A DNA stretch of 23,507 nucleotides from a virus, in IMG/VR virus record IMGVR_UViG_3300023184_000530, positions 1 to 23,507 of that record; one strand, 5' to 3'. Every line of letters begins with the position of its first letter. The first letter of the stretch is position 1. The translations under genes and the position numbers were made by a program. The notes below the pieces were generated by a model, which worked only from the letters and a program-made list of their open reading frames with translations, was not told where the DNA came from and made no database searches. Shown one piece after another: positions 3,167-9,540 of this stretch.

Positions 3167-4876
3167 ATGGCAGAAACATTAATATCACCAGGTGTCTTAG
3201 CAAGAGAAAACGATTCATCTTTTGTATCTAAAAGACCAGTTACAGTAGGAGCAGCAATTATTGGACCAACAGTTAAAGGTCCAGTTGAAGTCCCAACAGT
3301 AGTTACATCATATAGTGAATATACAAATAAATTTGGTAGTACATTTGTAAGTGGAGGAATAAATGATTCTACTACTTACTCTTATTTTACATCAATAGCA
3401 GCATATAATTATTTCATCAATGGTGGAAAATCATTATTAGTAGCTAGAGTAGTAACAGGATCTTATACATTCGCTTCAAGTTCAGCAGCTTCGAATTTAT
3501 TTACTTCTAATTCAGTTGTTTTTGAAACTTTATCTAAGGGTACAGTAATGAACAGTGCATGTACTGAAGTTAGTGGTGCATTATTAGCTAGTGGTTCAGC
3601 AGATAACGTAAGATGGCAAATTGTAAATTCAAACACAGCATCTGGAACATTCGACTTATTAGTTAGAAGAGGAGATGATAATACATTAACACCAACAGTA
3701 TTAGAAACATTTACAGGTTTATCATTAGATCCAAATTCAACAAATTATGTATCTCGTGTTATTGGTGATCAAACAGAAAATTACAATTCAACAAATATAC
3801 AAATTGAAACTAGTGGTTCATTTTCTAATAAATCGAATTATATTAGAGTAAAAACAGTAAATTACACTACACCAAATTATTTCGATAATAACGGAGTAGC
3901 TAAAAGTATATATACAGGTTCATTACCTGTTAATGCAAGTGGATCATTTGGTGGAGCAACAGGAACTATAAAAGGTGGAGCTAATTTTTACCAAAATATT
4001 TCAAGTACTGATACTCAAGGTTTAACAGGTGGATGTTATACTAACATGATTAACTTGTTAGCTAATACAGATGATTATAAATTCAACGTATTATTAACTC
4101 CTGGATTATATGATGCTGATTTTGCAAGTCAAGTTAGCTCAATTATAACTAATACTCAAAATAGAGGAGATAATATTTATATATTAGACCCAGTAGCTTA
4201 TGCTAAAACAATAACAGCAGTAGTAGGACAAGCAGCAACAAGAAATACTTCATACGCTGCATCTTATTGGCCATGGTGTCAAATTATTGATCCAGGAACA
4301 GGAAATCAAGTTTGGGTACCAGCATCAACAGTAATAGCAGGAGTATATGCTTATAACGATTCAGTAGCAGAACCTTGGTTCGCACCAGCAGGTATTAATA
4401 GAGGTGGTTTATCTCAAGTAATTAGAGTAGAACAAAAATTATCTCAAGCTAATCGTGATACTTTATATAATGGAAAAGTAAATCCAATTGCAACATTTCC
4501 TGGAGTAGGAATAGTAGTTTATGGACAGAAAACATTACAAACTAGAGCATCAGCTTTAGATAGAGTAAATGTTAGACGTTTATTGATTGAATTGAAATCT
4601 TATATTTCTCAAGTATCAAATAACTTAGTATTCGAAAATAACACAATAGCTACAAGAAATCAATTCTTAGCAGCAGTGAATCCATTCTTAACAAGTGTAC
4701 AACAACGTCAAGGTTTATATGCTTATAAAGTGAAAATGGATGACACTAATAATACAGGAGATACTATTGATAGACAAGAATTAATAGGTCAAATTTATAT
4801 TCAACCAGCTAAAACAATTGAATTTATTTATCTTGACTTTAATATTACACCAACTGGAGCTACTTTCCCAGCGTAA
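3167..4876 (+). CDS. 18: Tail sheath protein, T4 gp18-like
   Basis: 569 residues, against 659 in T4 gp18. The N-terminus SPGVLARENDSSF is the usual sheath opening (PGV..xE.D.S). The middle, about 90-290, is Ser/Thr/Asn-rich and variable, matching the surface-exposed domains. The C-terminal third is the conserved core: INRGGL near 409, then a block around 500-560 with DDTNNTGDTIDRQELIG and PAKTIEFIYLDFNITPTGA. This closely follows the T4 C-terminus (ETNNTPQVIDRNEF, KPARSINYITLNF, ATGADF). The protein forms the contractile cylinder around the tail tube. The gene has its own promoter-like element and is followed by the tube gene with its own copy, so the two major tail proteins can be made at high, separate levels. 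Confidence 0.95.
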   Translation: MAETLISPGVLARENDSSFVSKRPVTVGAAIIGPTVKGPVEVPTVVTSYSEYTNKFGSTFVSGGINDSTTYSYFTSIAAYNYFINGGKSLLVARVVTGSYTFASSSAASNLFTSNSVVFETLSKGTVMNSACTEVSGALLASGSADNVRWQIVNSNTASGTFDLLVRRGDDNTLTPTVLETFTGLSLDPNSTNYVSRVIGDQTENYNSTNIQIETSGSFSNKSNYIRVKTVNYTTPNYFDNNGVAKSIYTGSLPVNASGSFGGATGTIKGGANFYQNISSTDTQGLTGGCYTNMINLLANTDDYKFNVLLTPGLYDADFASQVSSIITNTQNRGDNIYILDPVAYAKTITAVVGQAATRNTSYAASYWPWCQIIDPGTGNQVWVPASTVIAGVYAYNDSVAEPWFAPAGINRGGLSQVIRVEQKLSQANRDTLYNGKVNPIATFPGVGIVVYGQKTLQTRASALDRVNVRRLLIELKSYISQVSNNLVFENNTIATRNQFLAAVNPFLTSVQQRQGLYAYKVKMDDTNNTGDTIDRQELIGQIYIQPAKTIEFIYLDFNITPTGATFPA

Positions 4877-4916: not shown

Positions 4917-5405
4917 ATGGCAATATTAGATCCAAACGAAATATTTTTTACAGCATTTGAACCTACATTAAAGAACCGATTCATAATGTATGTAGATGGA
5001 ATCCCATCTTACATCATTAAGAAAGTAGGAGCTGTTGGTGTAACAATGGATGAAATTAAATTAAACCACATCAACATTTACCGTAAAATTAAAGGTAAAG
5101 CGATTTGGGATGATGTTGAAATGACATTATTTAACCCTATTACTCCATCAGGTGCTCAAGCAGTAATGGAATGGGTACGTTTACATCACGAATCTGTAAC
5201 AGGAAGAGATGGATATTCAGATTTCTATAAGAAAGATGTTACTATCAACGTTCTAGGACCAGTTGGTGATATCGTTGGAGAATGGATCTTAAAAGGTGCA
5301 TTTATTAAATCAGCTAAATTTGGTGATTATTCTTGGGATGATGAAAACGCAGCACAAGAAATTACAGTAAACTTAGGAATGGATTATTGTATTCTCAATT
5401 TTTGA
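4917..5405 (+). CDS. 19: Tail tube protein, T4 gp19-like
   Basis: 162 residues, almost the length of T4 gp19 (163). It shows the T4_gp19 tail-tube family pattern: NRFIMYVDGIPSYIIKKV (about 21-38), the IYRKIKGKAIWDDVEMTL strand pair (about 55-72), and a C-terminal EITVNLGMDYC strand (about 149-159). This protein stacks in rings to make the inner tube through which DNA passes. The gene follows the sheath, as in T4, and is followed by a perfect 11-bp terminator hairpin, so the transcript made from the element at 4891 would be a short message for this abundant protein. The codons look ordinary for the window, with somewhat more C-ending codons than neighbours, which fits high expression. Confidence 0.93.
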   Translation: MAILDPNEIFFTAFEPTLKNRFIMYVDGIPSYIIKKVGAVGVTMDEIKLNHINIYRKIKGKAIWDDVEMTLFNPITPSGAQAVMEWVRLHHESVTGRDGYSDFYKKDVTINVLGPVGDIVGEWILKGAFIKSAKFGDYSWDDENAAQEITVNLGMDYCILNF

Positions 5406-5437: not shown

Positions 5438-5469
5438 AATGTCCGATATTTATTATCGGACATTTTTTT
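5438..5469 (+). terminator. Rho-independent terminator after the tube gene
   Basis: A perfect 11-bp stem (AATGTCCGATA at 5438-5448 with TATCGGACATT at 5454-5464) and a 5-base loop TTTAT are followed by a T run through 5469. It begins 33 bases after the tube stop codon. It insulates the tube message from the homing endonuclease gene behind it, whose ATG lies 9 bases after the T run. Confidence 0.92.
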
Positions 5470-5477
5470 ATCATATT

Positions 5478-6236
5478 ATGAAAAACGCGGAAAAATTAAT
5501 TCAAGAAAAATATAATGGGGTATATCCAATATGTGGATGTGGTTGTGAAGAAAAAACAGTTTATGATTATAATTCAAAGGATTTTGGAAAATTTAAAAGG
5601 GGACATCAAACCCGAGTAAATAAAAATTATTTTGGAGATCCTAAAAATCCAAAACGAGTAGAAAAAATTAAGTCAACACGTAAAGCTAAATTTGCTTCTG
5701 GTGAATATAACCATGTGTTAAATGCTGTAAAAGAAAATCGTAAAAACCCTGAGTTAGGTAAAAATATATCTAAAGGCGCTAAAGGTATCCCTAAACCTAA
5801 ACCCGAAGGATTTGGTATAGGAAGAAAACACTCAGAAAAAACCAAAGAAAAAATGAGTGAATCTGCTATTGAAAGGATACTAGAAACAGATCAAAATCAC
5901 ACTTCTAAATTAGAAAAAGAATTTGCATTAATATTAGATAATTTGAAAATAAAATACACCCAATGGTTTTATGCTAAAGATATTAAAGCTTTTTATGATT
6001 TTTATATTCCATTAAAAAATACTATAATCGAAGTAGATGGAGATTTTTGGCATTGTAACCCAAGTAGCAAATTTTCAGATCCAAAATATGATAGTCAAAA
6101 GAAAAATCTTAAACGTGATCAAATTAAAAATCAATGGGTTAAAGATAACGGTTTTAAATTACTTAGATTTTGGGAAACTGATATTAACAATAATCCACAA
6201 CAAATAATAGAAATACTTAAACAAGAGCTTACTTAA
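5478..6236 (+). CDS. Homing endonuclease, NUMOD3 plus Vsr-like (EDxHD-type) nuclease
   Basis: 252 residues from the ATG at 5478. The frame can be extended to an ATG at 5439, but that start lies inside the terminator stem, so 5478 is preferred. An N-terminal Cys/His cluster (Cys19, Cys21, Cys23, then RGH at 41-43) looks like the small zinc-binding module common in these enzymes. A NUMOD3 helix, GIGRKHSEKTKEKMSESA, spans 113-130. The nuclease domain at 143-250 has LEKEF, FYDFYIP (Asp174), IEVDGDFWH (Glu185, Asp187, His192), KRDQ (Asp214) and LLRFWETDI. This arrangement matches Vsr/PD-(D/E)XK-related free-standing homing enzymes such as I-Bth0305I. It sits between tube and chaperone genes. With no strong promoter between terminator and ATG, expression is probably by read-through. 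Confidence 0.87.
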   Translation: MKNAEKLIQEKYNGVYPICGCGCEEKTVYDYNSKDFGKFKRGHQTRVNKNYFGDPKNPKRVEKIKSTRKAKFASGEYNHVLNAVKENRKNPELGKNISKGAKGIPKPKPEGFGIGRKHSEKTKEKMSESAIERILETDQNHTSKLEKEFALILDNLKIKYTQWFYAKDIKAFYDFYIPLKNTIIEVDGDFWHCNPSSKFSDPKYDSQKKNLKRDQIKNQWVKDNGFKLLRFWETDINNNPQQIIEILKQELT

Positions 6237-6303: not shown

Positions 6304-7032
6304 ATGGAACCTACAAAACATGACTTCCCAACCGAAGTAATCGATTTACCATCAAAAGGCTTAATTTACCCTGAAACTAGTCCTCTATCAAGTGGAAAAG
6401 TAGAAATGAAATATATGGGAGCATTAGAAGAAGATATTCTAACTAACCAATCATATATTGCTAATGGAACAGTTTTAGATAAACTATTCCAATCATTAAT
6501 TGTATCACCTATCACATACAGTGATTTAGTTGTAGGAGATAAGAATGCAATTATGGTTGCAGCACGTGTTTTAGGATATGGTAAAGATTATACATTCGAA
6601 ATTGATGGAGTAGAACATACAGTAGATTTATCTAAAATAGATAATAAACCATTTGATATGCCAACTAAAGGAGTAAATGAATTTTCTTATACTCTACCAT
6701 CTACTAACGTAAATATCACTTATAAAATTTTAACTCATGGTGATGAGCAAAAGATACAAGCAGAATTAGATGGTCTTAAAAAAATTAATAGAAACGGTTC
6801 TCCTGAGCTGTCTACTCGTCTTAAATATATGATTACATCAGTGGATGGAAAACGAGAAGGAAAAGATATTCGAGAGTTTGTAGATAAACGACTGTTAGCT
6901 CGTGATTCACGCGAGCTAAGAAAACATATTAGAGAAACACAGCCAGACGTAGATCTGACTTTTTTTCCCGAAGACGGTTCAACTCGAATCGATATACCAG
7001 TTGGGGTTAAGTTTTTTTGGCCTGACTTCTAG
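6304..7032 (+). CDS. T4 gp26-like baseplate protein / tail assembly chaperone (short form)
   Basis: 242 residues. The opening EVIDLPSKGLIYPE, then KVEMKYMGALEEDILTNQSYI (about 32-52) and GDKNAIMVAARVLGYGKDY (about 78-96), recalls the T4 baseplate gp26 family (PF12322) and related tail proteins that start with a 'PSKG..Y' motif. No signal peptide or membrane span is visible. The position decides the likely role. It lies between tube and tape measure, and its end overlaps a second frame, as in gpG/gpGT-type tail assembly chaperones that coat the tape measure before tube polymerisation. The stop TAG is at 7030-7032, after an in-frame run AAG TTT TTT TGG. If ribosomes slip there, a ~335-residue long form is made. 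Gp26 homology and the chaperone role are both inferred, not shown. Confidence 0.68.
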   Translation: MEPTKHDFPTEVIDLPSKGLIYPETSPLSSGKVEMKYMGALEEDILTNQSYIANGTVLDKLFQSLIVSPITYSDLVVGDKNAIMVAARVLGYGKDYTFEIDGVEHTVDLSKIDNKPFDMPTKGVNEFSYTLPSTNVNITYKILTHGDEQKIQAELDGLKKINRNGSPELSTRLKYMITSVDGKREGKDIREFVDKRLLARDSRELRKHIRETQPDVDLTFFPEDGSTRIDIPVGVKFFWPDF

Positions 7033-7312
7033 TACTGCAGCTATTGCAAGACAAAATTTATTCACACAAATTCACGAAATTGTATTTCACGGTAAAGGCG
7101 GTTATGACTGGGTAACAGTATATAACATGCCTCGCTGGCTACGTCAATTTACATTTAACAAAATCAATGAATTTTATCAAGAAGAAGCTAAAGCGCACGA
7201 AGATGCGCAAGGTGGAAAATCTACTAATATAATAGATTCATCAGGTAAAATTAATAGAGGAAATTACGATGCAATGAAAAATCCATCTAAACCTGTAGTT
7301 AAATATAAATAA
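7001..7312 (+). CDS. +1-frame extension of the chaperone gene (frameshift product)
   Basis: This frame is open from 6953 to the TAA at 7310-7312. Its only early start is a TTG at 7001, with no ribosome site, so an independent gene is unlikely. The conserved-looking part runs from about 7025: a helix (AIARQNLFTQIHEIVF), then HGKGGYDWVTVYNMPRWLRQFT, then an Asn/Lys-rich tail. Fusing to the upstream frame at the T run (7012-7018) gives about 238 + 97 residues. Forward slippage of one base on UUUUUUU, or backward by two, would do it, because the Phe tRNA re-pairs perfectly. The alternative is a lost or gained T from sequencing or mutation that split one normal gene. Either way the segment belongs with the gene before it. 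Confidence 0.62.
   Translation: MGLSFFGLTSSTAAIARQNLFTQIHEIVFHGKGGYDWVTVYNMPRWLRQFTFNKINEFYQEEAKAHEDAQGGKSTNIIDSSGKINRGNYDAMKNPSKPVVKYK
7012..7018 (+). other. Candidate ribosomal frameshift site (seven T)
   Basis: TTTTTTT is read in frame as TTT TTT T(GG). Skipping T7018 moves ribosomes into the +1 frame, which is open to 7312; the -1 frame meets TGA within a few codons. A homopolymer is also the commonest place for an indel error, so the site needs read-level confirmation. Confidence 0.5.
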
Positions 7313-7338: not shown

Positions 7339-9540
7339 ATGGCTGATATTAAAAAAGATATAGAAGATTTATTAAATAAATCAACCCGCCTATCTTCTGC
7401 TACAAGAAAAAATTTCCAAGATCAATTAGATCTTCTTATTCAACAAGGAGCACAACTTGAAAGATTCGAAGCATTATATGGTTCTATTGGAGACTCTGTA
7501 GATGCTGTTAGAGACAATTTAAAATATATTTCAGATTCATTAAAAGATTCAGTTAATGAATTAAGTAATGGGAGAAAATATTTACAAGATCAAAAATCTA
7601 TACTAAATAAATTATCAGATATAGCTAGAAATACTTTAAATATTAGAAGAGGAGAAACAGAGTTTGATAAAACTAAAGTAGCTAAATTAAAATTCGAAAC
7701 TAAACAAAGAATAGAAACATTAGAAGTTATAAAACAACAGCATGCTGTTGGTTCTCAAGAACGTAACGCTATAGAAGATCAAATTAAACAAGCATATAAG
7801 ATACTTACATCTTTTCAAAGAATAGCAAAAGTAGATGAAGGTGTAAATAGAACATTAGGTGTTACACCTAAATTATTAGGGGGTATAGATAAAGCATTAC
7901 AAAAATTAGGAATGCCTAATTTAGGATTTGCTGAGGCATTATCTGAAACTAAAAAAGAAGCACAAGAAGCTGCTGGATTAGGAAATAAAGATTTTAAAGT
8001 TTGGGGAACATTAACAGGAAAAGTAGCAGATAATTTTAAATCTATGCTTTCTACATCTAATATGATACAAGGTATCATTGCGTTAATGATTAAAGGTTTC
8101 TTTAGTTTAAATGAAGCCCAAACAAAATTCCAAAATGAAACTGGTCTAACTGTCAAACATGTAGACACATTAAATATGAGTTTGATATCATCATCAGACT
8201 ATATTAAACAAGCAATAGGCTTAACTAAAGAGTTAGGTATGAATGCTACTTTAATATTTACTCCTGCAACATTACAAGAAGCAGCTGAGTTAACTAATTT
8301 AATAGGTTTAAGTGTTGATGAATCAGATCGTTTAGCCATATTGTCTAAAGTTTCAGGAAAAGAATTAACTAAAACTAGTGAAAATATGGTTAAAATTGTT
8401 GGTAACTTTAATAAGACCAATAAATCAGCTATATCAGCAAAAGCAGTATTACAAGATGTAGCTAAAACGTCAGATTCCATATCTATGACATTTGGAGGAA
8501 ATCCAGAAAAGATAGCAGCAGCAGCAGCAGAAGCTAGAAAATTAGGTTTAACATTAGAAGGAGTAAATGCATCAGCTGATGCATTATTAAATTTTGAATC
8601 ATCTATTAATGATGAGATTTCAGCAGAACTTATTACAGGTCAACAATTAAATTTAGAAAAAGCTAGATTATATGCTATAAATGATGACATAGCTGGTTTA
8701 ACTAAAGAAATAGGAAATAATGAAGGTATAATCAATGGTTATCTTAAAGGTAATAGGATATCAAGAGAAGCAATAGCAACATCTATTGGTATGAGTAAAG
8801 ATGCTTTAGCAAAAATGGTTTATACTCAACAAATACAAAAAGGTTTATCTTCTGAAGCAGCTGCTCAAGCAGCAGGTGTAGAGTTAAGTGATATGAAACG
8901 TTTATCAGTTCAAGATAGTATAAATAAATCTATTGAAAAAATGGGTGAAGCTTTAGCTGGACCATTAGAATTTTTAGCTAAAATGGCTAGTCATTTTGGG
9001 GTTATCCAAGCTATTATAGGTCTTTTAGTTGGGGTTCAAATAGTTAAAATGATTGTATTATTTGGACAATTAGCAGGTGTAATTAAAATAATTAGAGGTT
9101 TAGAAATAGGAGCAGCAATAGCAAAAGGTTGGTCAGCAGCAATGAGTAGTCCTGCTTCATTATTAACAGGAGGTATAGCTGGTTTAGCATTAGGGGGAAT
9201 AATTACAGCAGCCATTATGAGTTCGGCTAAATCAGCAGGAGATATGTATTCCCCAGCAGATGGAAAAACACAAGTATCAACTAAAGAGGGAGGATTATTT
9301 GAATTAAGTAAAAATGATAGCTTAATGGCATTTCCAGAATCTAAAATGTCAACAGGTAAAAAATCATCTTCTAAATCATCACCAACACAACAACAAGATC
9401 TATCACCATTACTAGATGAACTTAAAGCATTACGTCAAGAAACATCAAAACAAAACAAAAAACCAATAACAGTTCAAAACAGTATGAACGGTTCTCAATT
9501 TGGAACTTCATTAGCAATGAACTCTTATAAAACTCAATAA
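7339..9540 (+). CDS. Tail tape measure protein
   Basis: 733 residues, the longest protein in the window; T4 gp29 is 590. The N-terminal ~160 residues are helical and charged, with coiled-coil character. A hydrophobic helix lies near 235-255 (MIQGIIALMIKGFF). A long Ala-rich helical region follows, with FGGNPEKIAAAAAEARKLG near 387-405. A strongly hydrophobic stretch runs from about 553 to 582, and a Gly/Ala-rich membrane-like one (LLTGGIAGLALGGIITAAIM) from about 607 to 626. The C-terminus has GGLFELSKNDSLMAFP, a motif common at tape-measure ends, then a Ser/Lys-rich tail. Such proteins set tail length inside the tube and may enter the host membrane at infection. Placement right after a chaperone gene with an overlapping frame supports the call. 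It has its own promoter-like element. Confidence 0.88.
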   Translation: MADIKKDIEDLLNKSTRLSSATRKNFQDQLDLLIQQGAQLERFEALYGSIGDSVDAVRDNLKYISDSLKDSVNELSNGRKYLQDQKSILNKLSDIARNTLNIRRGETEFDKTKVAKLKFETKQRIETLEVIKQQHAVGSQERNAIEDQIKQAYKILTSFQRIAKVDEGVNRTLGVTPKLLGGIDKALQKLGMPNLGFAEALSETKKEAQEAAGLGNKDFKVWGTLTGKVADNFKSMLSTSNMIQGIIALMIKGFFSLNEAQTKFQNETGLTVKHVDTLNMSLISSSDYIKQAIGLTKELGMNATLIFTPATLQEAAELTNLIGLSVDESDRLAILSKVSGKELTKTSENMVKIVGNFNKTNKSAISAKAVLQDVAKTSDSISMTFGGNPEKIAAAAAEARKLGLTLEGVNASADALLNFESSINDEISAELITGQQLNLEKARLYAINDDIAGLTKEIGNNEGIINGYLKGNRISREAIATSIGMSKDALAKMVYTQQIQKGLSSEAAAQAAGVELSDMKRLSVQDSINKSIEKMGEALAGPLEFLAKMASHFGVIQAIIGLLVGVQIVKMIVLFGQLAGVIKIIRGLEIGAAIAKGWSAAMSSPASLLTGGIAGLALGGIITAAIMSSAKSAGDMYSPADGKTQVSTKEGGLFELSKNDSLMAFPESKMSTGKKSSSKSSPTQQQDLSPLLDELKALRQETSKQNKKPITVQNSMNGSQFGTSLAMNSYKTQ

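What the first reader, a model, noticed from the sequence alone, without database searches (positions are those of the whole stretch)
6953..7312. Probable programmed +1 (or -2) frameshift joining a gp26-like gene to a hidden extension before the tape measure
The gp26-like gene ends at 7032, but the +1 frame is open from 6953 to 7312 and codes for a well-formed helix-plus-aromatic segment with no credible start. The switch can happen at seven T (7012-7018). Position immediately before the tape-measure gene is where tail assembly chaperones use conserved frameshifts (Xu, Hendrix and Duda 2004); most use -1, a few +1 or -2. Gp26-family proteins are not, to my knowledge, usually described as frameshifted, so this may link T4-like gp26 proteins to the gpG/gpGT chaperone system.
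Basis: partly seen in the sequence, partly recalled or inferred. Interest (0 to 1): 0.72.

Follow-up and report, generated by a model that had tools for sequence, protein, structure and literature searches.

The report
Ribosome-slip tail chaperone, +1 version
A phage tail-assembly gene makes two proteins from one message, a short one and a longer one reached when some ribosomes slip forward by one base on a run of T's; that such genes slip was already known, but here the slip appears to go the opposite way from that of related T4-like phages.

Summary
The gp26-like gene (6304-7032) overlaps a +1-frame extension (open 6959-7309). TTTTTTTGG (7012-7020) and the extension are conserved in about 100 relatives, always in the +1 frame. 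The extension is under purifying selection (dN/dS 0.23), and constraint on both frames begins exactly at the T run. Position (tail tube, this gene, tape measure), family (phrog_150 / PF12322, i.e. T4 gp26 and gp51) and predicted fold make it the tail assembly chaperone: TAC-N (242 aa) and, after frameshifting, TAC-NC (about 335 aa). The link from gp26/gp51 to gpG/gpGT is prior art (Vladimirov, Gautam and Davidson 2022). What may be new is the direction. Cyanophages, KVP40, phiM12, Vi01 and PA5oct-like phages shift -1 (mostly on T_TTT_TTY), whereas this clade (immuto, Mel-JY01, SP-15, LIS04, GXN1, RM378, many uncultured phages) shifts +1 at the same Phe-Phe position, best explained by slipping on UUU_Y. 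A -2 shift does not fit the TTC-TTT-TGG and TTC-TTT-CGT relatives. One nested lineage has no slippery run and encodes TAC-C as a separate ATG-started gene. Nothing was measured; frameshifting and its direction are inferred from comparative sequence.

The parts
6304..7032 (+). TAC-N: gp26-like (phrog_150 / PF12322 family) tail assembly chaperone, short form, 242 aa, ends KFFWPDF*
   Evidence: phrog_150 E 0.0027 for the window itself; immuto homologue E 4e-10; PF12322 in 20 of 36 close family members, best 5e-22; fold matches T4-like baseplate hub/gp26-type models
7012..7018 (+). Slippery run: 0-frame codons AAG TTT TTT TGG; inferred +1 slip of tRNA-Phe on UUU_U (7012-7015 or 7015-7018)
   Evidence: TTT-Y-TT-T conserved in 77 of 77 unique loci; T at the wobble base of the first Phe codon 77/77
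7019..7026 (+). GGCCTGAC: dual-coded (0 frame (T)GG-CCT-GAC = W-P-D; +1 frame GGC-CTG-AC(N) = G-L-T); also puts TGA (7023-7025) in the -1 frame
   Evidence: CCT 77/77 against 33% background, GAC 71/77 against 25% background; -1 frame closes after 2 codons in 77/77
7019..7312 (+). TAC-C: extension read only after the frameshift (97 codons plus stop); long form TAC-NC about 335 aa
   Evidence: dN/dS 0.23 against 0.90 and 1.69 in the other frames; helical model, pLDDT 76
4917..5405 (+). Tail tube (gp19-like), context
   Evidence: phrog_4542 tail tube E 2e-19
7339..9540 (+). Presumed tail tape measure protein, 733 aa, context (by position; the gene in the same place is annotated tape measure in immuto)

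Best explanation
[quoted passage not shown] Most ribosomes stop at 7030-7032 and make TAC-N. A minority, with peptidyl-tRNA-Phe on UUU at the T run, slip one base forward (UUU_U to UUU), continue in the +1 frame and make TAC-NC. By analogy with lambda gpG/gpGT, TAC-N coats the tape measure protein, and the TAC-C part of the rarer long form recruits tail-tube subunits. Shown by sequence: the overlapping frames, the conserved +1 relation, the dual coding that starts at the T run, selection on TAC-C, and the gene order. Inferred: that slippage happens in the cell, that it is +1, its frequency, and the chaperone function.
For: (1) The extension is in the +1 frame in all 77 unique loci and the named relatives, and in 23 of 23 loci fetched by the extension itself. 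(2) Zero-frame wobble bases vary freely upstream of the T run but are fixed in and just after it, where they become second-position bases of the +1 frame (CCT 77/77 against 33% expected, GAC 71/77 against 25%). This places the start of dual translation at the T run. (3) dN/dS is 0.23 in the +1 frame and 0.90/1.69 in the wrong frames. (4) In 10 of 77 loci no ATG/GTG/TTG precedes the run in the open +1 stretch, and in L123-L131 a +1 stop lies about 9 nt upstream, so separate initiation upstream is excluded there. (5) Gene order is sheath, tube, this gene, tape measure. (6) Homology to phrog_150/PF12322, and the T4 paralogues: gp26 ends at the equivalent FF, gp51 continues. (7) The best solved-structure match of the TAC-N model is the HK97 tail assembly chaperone 2ob9, although weak (E 0.92). 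(8) +1 rather than -2: relatives with TTC-TTT-TGG (L123-L132) and TTC-TTT-CGT (GXN1) would put tRNA-Phe on UCU after -2; UUU_C is a proven +1 slip site elsewhere (PMC3498833).
Against: No protein or ribosome data. No conserved downstream RNA structure was found, and the A-site codon is Trp UGG, not a stop or an obviously rare codon, so the stimulator is unknown. LIS04 (TTT-TTT-AGT) and LR756508 (TTT-CTA-TTC) fit a slip on the first Phe codon, while GXN1 and L123 fit only the second, so the exact slip codon is not uniform. Direct profile comparison of the window family with T4 gp26 alone fails; the link runs through intermediates. The PDB fold match is not significant by itself.
Confidence: 0.86

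Rival explanations
1. The same long form is made, but by a -2 slip on the T7 run, as in phage Mu gpGT.
For: T7 allows P-site re-pairing two bases back; Mu gpGT is the only known natural -2 case, and a U6A site can be made to give -2 (PMC3498833).
Against: In relatives with TTC-TTT-TGG (L123-L132) and TTC-TTT-CGT (GXN1) a -2 slip puts tRNA-Phe on UCU; LR756508 TTT-CTA-TTC also has no good -2 partner. +1 fits more members.
Confidence: 0.09
2. TAC-C is a separate gene started at a weak codon inside the overlap (TTG 7001) or at ATG 7127, with no frameshift.
For: TTG 7001 exists in the window. In L133/L138 TAC-C really is a separate ATG-started gene.
Against: 10 of 77 loci have no start in the open +1 stretch before the run; L123-L131 have a +1 stop about 9 nt upstream; the first start after the run is usually 36 codons in, past conserved residues. 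The T run and dual-coded GGCCTGAC would be unexplained.
Confidence: 0.04
3. RNA polymerase slippage on the T7 run (indels in mRNA) rather than ribosomal slippage gives the long form.
For: T7-T8 runs can provoke transcriptional slippage.
Against: Relatives keep the +1 relation with interrupted runs (TTTCTTTGG in immuto, TTCTTTTGG in L123, TTCTTTCGT in GXN1, TTTCTATTC in LR756508), while the codon-level UUU_Y feature is mostly kept.
Confidence: 0.03
4. Sequencing error or pseudogene: one normal gene broken by a T-run error.
For: Homopolymers are error prone.
Against: The same junction occurs in 77 unique loci from many samples, and the same +1 relation in isolated, completely sequenced phages.
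Confidence: 0.005

Closest known systems
T4 gp26 / gp51 (TAC-N / TAC-NC of T4-like phages; phrog_150, PF12322; Vladimirov, Gautam and Davidson 2022)
   Same: Homologous N-terminal protein through intermediates; a C-terminal extension with a similar pattern (Y-S/D-x-x-T/S-I/V-x-x-M-P) in gp51 only.
   Different: T4 uses two separate, divergently transcribed genes; here one gene plus a +1 shift.
Cyanophage / KVP40 / phiM12 / HTVC008M gp26 with the 'gp51' hub-assembly-catalyst frame (phrog_634)
   Same: Homologous gene, same position of the switch at a Phe-Phe pair.
   Different: Extension in the -1 frame with the heptamer T_TTT_TTC or T_TTT_TTT; here the +1 frame.
Lambda gpG/gpGT and other tail assembly chaperones (Xu, Hendrix and Duda 2004)
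   Same: Gene order tube - G/T - tape measure; short plus recoded long form; mainly helical extension.
   Different: Lambda shifts -1; no sequence similarity was tested; the fold match to HK97 TAC 2ob9 is weak.
Phage Mu gpGT (-2) and the probable +1 TAC of archaeal virus HSTV-2 (reported in PMC3498833 and PMC5009743)
   Same: The extension is in the frame reached by +1 or -2.
   Different: Unrelated genes; here a UUU_Y site conserved over a wide clade.
Influenza PA-X UCC_UUU_CGU +1 site (PMC3498833)
   Same: P-site UUU_C slip; GXN1 has UUC_UUU_CGU.
   Different: Eukaryotic host; a resemblance of the site only, no kinship.

Membership tests
Recoded tail assembly chaperone (gpG/gpGT type) | Lies between the tail tube and tape measure genes | tested here: met
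   an endonuclease-like ORF (5439-6236) sits between tube and TAC in the window
Recoded tail assembly chaperone (gpG/gpGT type) | Short product plus a long product in another frame, with a conserved slip site near the end of the first ORF | tested here: met
   (sequence evidence only)
Recoded tail assembly chaperone (gpG/gpGT type) | Chaperone fold of the N domain | tested here: inconclusive
   HK97 TAC 2ob9 is the top PDB match but E 0.92, prob 0.38
Recoded tail assembly chaperone (gpG/gpGT type) | Binds tape measure, absent from the virion, required for tail assembly | not testable with these tools
   needs experiments
T4-like TAC (gp26/gp51; phrog_150/PF12322) | Profile match | tested here: met
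   window phrog_150 E 0.0027, no Pfam match of its own; PF12322 in 20 of 36 close relatives, best 5e-22; immuto E 4e-10; SP-15 3e-31
T4-like TAC, -1 frameshift type | TAC-C in the -1 frame after T_TTT_TTY | tested here: not met
   the -1 frame closes within 2 codons in 77/77 loci; TAC-C is in the +1 frame
Mu-type -2 frameshift | -2 re-pairing possible across the clade | tested here: not met
   impossible with standard pairing in L123-L132 and GXN1; possible in the window itself
[quoted passage not shown]
   the A-site codon is TGG in most; the zero-frame stop lies several codons on
RF2-type +1 frameshift | Internal Shine-Dalgarno a few bases upstream | tested here: inconclusive
   GG(G) at -12 to -10 is common but coded by Gly and replaced in some loci

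The most novel reading that the evidence does not exclude
One homologous tail-chaperone gene family makes its long form or its two parts in four different ways: -1 frameshift, +1 frameshift at the same Phe-Phe codons, gene duplication (T4), and a split TAC-C gene with its own start. The frameshift direction has changed more than once while the site and the products were kept.
Probability: 0.7. Interest if true: 0.6.

Novelty: new variant of a known kind. Interest (0 to 1): 0.47.

Why it matters
[quoted passage not shown] Having -1 and +1 versions of one homologous gene, at the same codons, makes it testable how frameshift direction is set and switched in evolution. The lineage with a split TAC-C gene would test whether the chaperone's two parts must be covalently joined.

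Tried and rejected
Alignment A1 was too divergent for a collection scan. Direct profile comparison of the window family with T4 gp26 or whole gp51 gave nothing; intermediates were used instead. TAC-C fold search found no significant match. The upstream TTTTTTT (6960-6966) was considered as a second slip site: it lies in the open +1 stretch and TTT-TTT-CCC is common in relatives, but +1-frame second positions between the two runs vary freely, so it is not favoured. The Vladimirov 2022 paper is not held, so whether it already lists +1 members is unknown.

Full report
WHAT IS THERE. The window carries a T4-like tail module: sheath (3167-4876), tail tube (4917-5405), an endonuclease-like ORF (5439-6236), the gp26-like gene (6304-7032), and a presumed tape measure gene (7339-9540). 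Zero frame at the end of the gp26-like gene reads AAG TTT TTT TGG CCT GAC TTC TAG. The +1 frame is open from 6959 to 7309 (stop 7310-7312) and continues GGC CTG ACT TCT AGT... with possible starts only at 7001 (TTG), 7127 and 7274. By composition alone a 98-codon open stretch is expected in 2-4 of 10,000 trials. Runs of seven T are rarer in the window than chance (12 places against about 52 expected), so having one here is not explained by AT-richness.

THE RELATIVES. The extension matches DNA directly downstream of the gp26-like gene in Flavobacterium phage immuto, Microcystis phage Mel-JY01 and LR756508. A scan of viral contigs gave 80 loci. In every one that reaches far enough the extension is in the +1 frame, at the same place, behind TTT-Y-TTT-(GG/AC)-CCTGA(C). 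A second scan that used only the extension of a distant member as bait returned 23 other loci, all +1; 20 show TTT TTT T at the junction in the printed stretch, and the other three (L174, L175, L178) show TTT TGG CCT GA with the stop further on. The T run is therefore not a sequencing error.

WHERE DUAL READING STARTS. In 77 unique loci the wobble bases of the zero frame vary upstream of the run (0.1-1.2 bits each) but are fixed in it and in the next codons: T, T, mostly G, T, mostly C. CCT is used 77/77 times (33% of Pro codons elsewhere in the gene) and GAC 71/77 (25% of Asp codons elsewhere). Those bases are second-position bases of the +1 frame, so the +1 frame is read from the T run on and not before. 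Beyond the overlap dN/dS is 0.23 in the +1 frame and 0.90 or 1.69 when the same DNA is read in the other frames; TAC-N gives 0.14. The +1 frame stays open 82-110 codons in 72 of 73 complete loci. The -1 frame closes after two codons in 77/77, because CCTGAC contains TGA in that frame.

A SEPARATE START IS UNLIKELY. Ten of 77 loci have no ATG/GTG/TTG in the open +1 stretch before the run. In L123-L131 a +1 stop sits about 9 nt before the slip. The first start after the run is typically 36 codons in, beyond the conserved beginning of the extension.

WHAT IT IS. The gene family is phrog_150 / PF12322, which holds T4 gp26 and gp51. T4 gp26 ends at about the point where the frames switch here; gp51 carries on with an extension of similar pattern (profile comparisons of the extensions give E 2e-4 to 4e-5 for one pairwise test, probability 45-72%). 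The TAC-N model (pLDDT 92) matches predicted SP-15, CP220 and other T4-like hub/assembly proteins, and its top solved structure is the HK97 tail assembly chaperone, but only at E 0.92. Gene order, short plus long form, and family together make it the tail assembly chaperone. This assignment of gp26/gp51 was already made by Vladimirov, Gautam and Davidson (Virology 2022, 566:9-15), cited in PMC10885494 and PMC12846349. As I recall its abstract, T4 itself uses two genes while several other T4-like groups frameshift; I could not read the paper.

DIRECTION. In Syn9, P-SSM2, S-PM2, HTVC008M, phiM12, KVP40, phiW-14, Atu_ph07 and the PA5oct-like phage Ettore the extension is in the -1 frame behind T_TTT_TTC or T_TTT_TTT; in Vi01 it is behind A_ATT_TTC. 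In the window clade, SP-15, LIS04, GXN1, RM378 and LR756508 it is in the +1 frame at the corresponding Phe-Phe (or Phe-Leu) codons. A tree of TAC-N puts T4 and the cyanophage-like -1 members in one fully supported group and most +1 members in the other, with -1 lineages and a split lineage inside the latter; well-supported branches force at least two changes of direction. Several branches are long and the root is unknown, so the order of changes is open. For SP-15, LIS04, GXN1 and RM378 the extension was recognised by position, openness and pattern rather than by strong sequence similarity to the window.

MECHANISM. A +1 slip of tRNA-Phe on UUU_U or UUU_C is available in nearly all +1 members. 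A -2 slip is possible in the window itself, but not in the TTC-TTT-TGG group (L123-L132) or GXN1 (TTC-TTT-CGT), where it would pair tRNA-Phe with UCU. UUU_C is a mass-spectrometry-proven +1 site in influenza PA-X (PMC3498833), and Mu gpGT is the only known natural -2 case. No stop codon is in the A site and no conserved RNA structure was found, so what stimulates the shift is unknown.

A SPLIT LINEAGE. L133 (187.8 kb contig) and L138 lack the slippery run. There TAC-C starts at its own ATG 2-5 nt after the TAC-N stop and has a conserved extra N-terminal segment. L133's contig has no second TAC-N. This lineage is nested in the +1 clade.

LIMITS. All of this is comparative sequence evidence. Many loci are uncultured fragments and share ancestry, so counts of loci are not independent events.

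Noticed in passing
L133:2477-3543, L138:2378-3510: Split variant: no slippery run; TAC-C is a separate ATG-started ORF 2-5 nt after the TAC-N stop, with a conserved extra N-terminal segment; only one TAC-N in the 187.8 kb contig of L133.
   Followed up: partly
L100 (LR756511), L143, L099 (Atu_ph07), L101 (Ettore): -1 frameshift members that fall inside the mostly +1 half of the TAC-N tree.
   Followed up: partly
window 6960-6966: A second T7 run 52 nt upstream (ACT TTT TTT CCC), also common in relatives and inside the open +1 stretch; no dual-frame constraint between the two runs.
   Followed up: partly
window 5439-6236 and 925-1515: Two nuclease-like ORFs (DUF559/restriction-endonuclease-like C-terminus; GIY-YIG-looking by eye, no Pfam hit) sit among the tail genes, resembling free-standing homing endonucleases.
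   Followed up: no
L001:4730-4995, L004:4727-4948, L098:2727-2960: Public annotations leave TAC-C out or call a small ORF in it hypothetical; none joins it to TAC-N.
   Followed up: yes
L037: The +1 extension is cut by a stop after 30 codons though similarity continues; sequence error or decay.
   Followed up: no
window 1-23507: T7 runs are fewer than in dinucleotide shuffles (12 against about 52), as if homopolymer runs were avoided.
   Followed up: no
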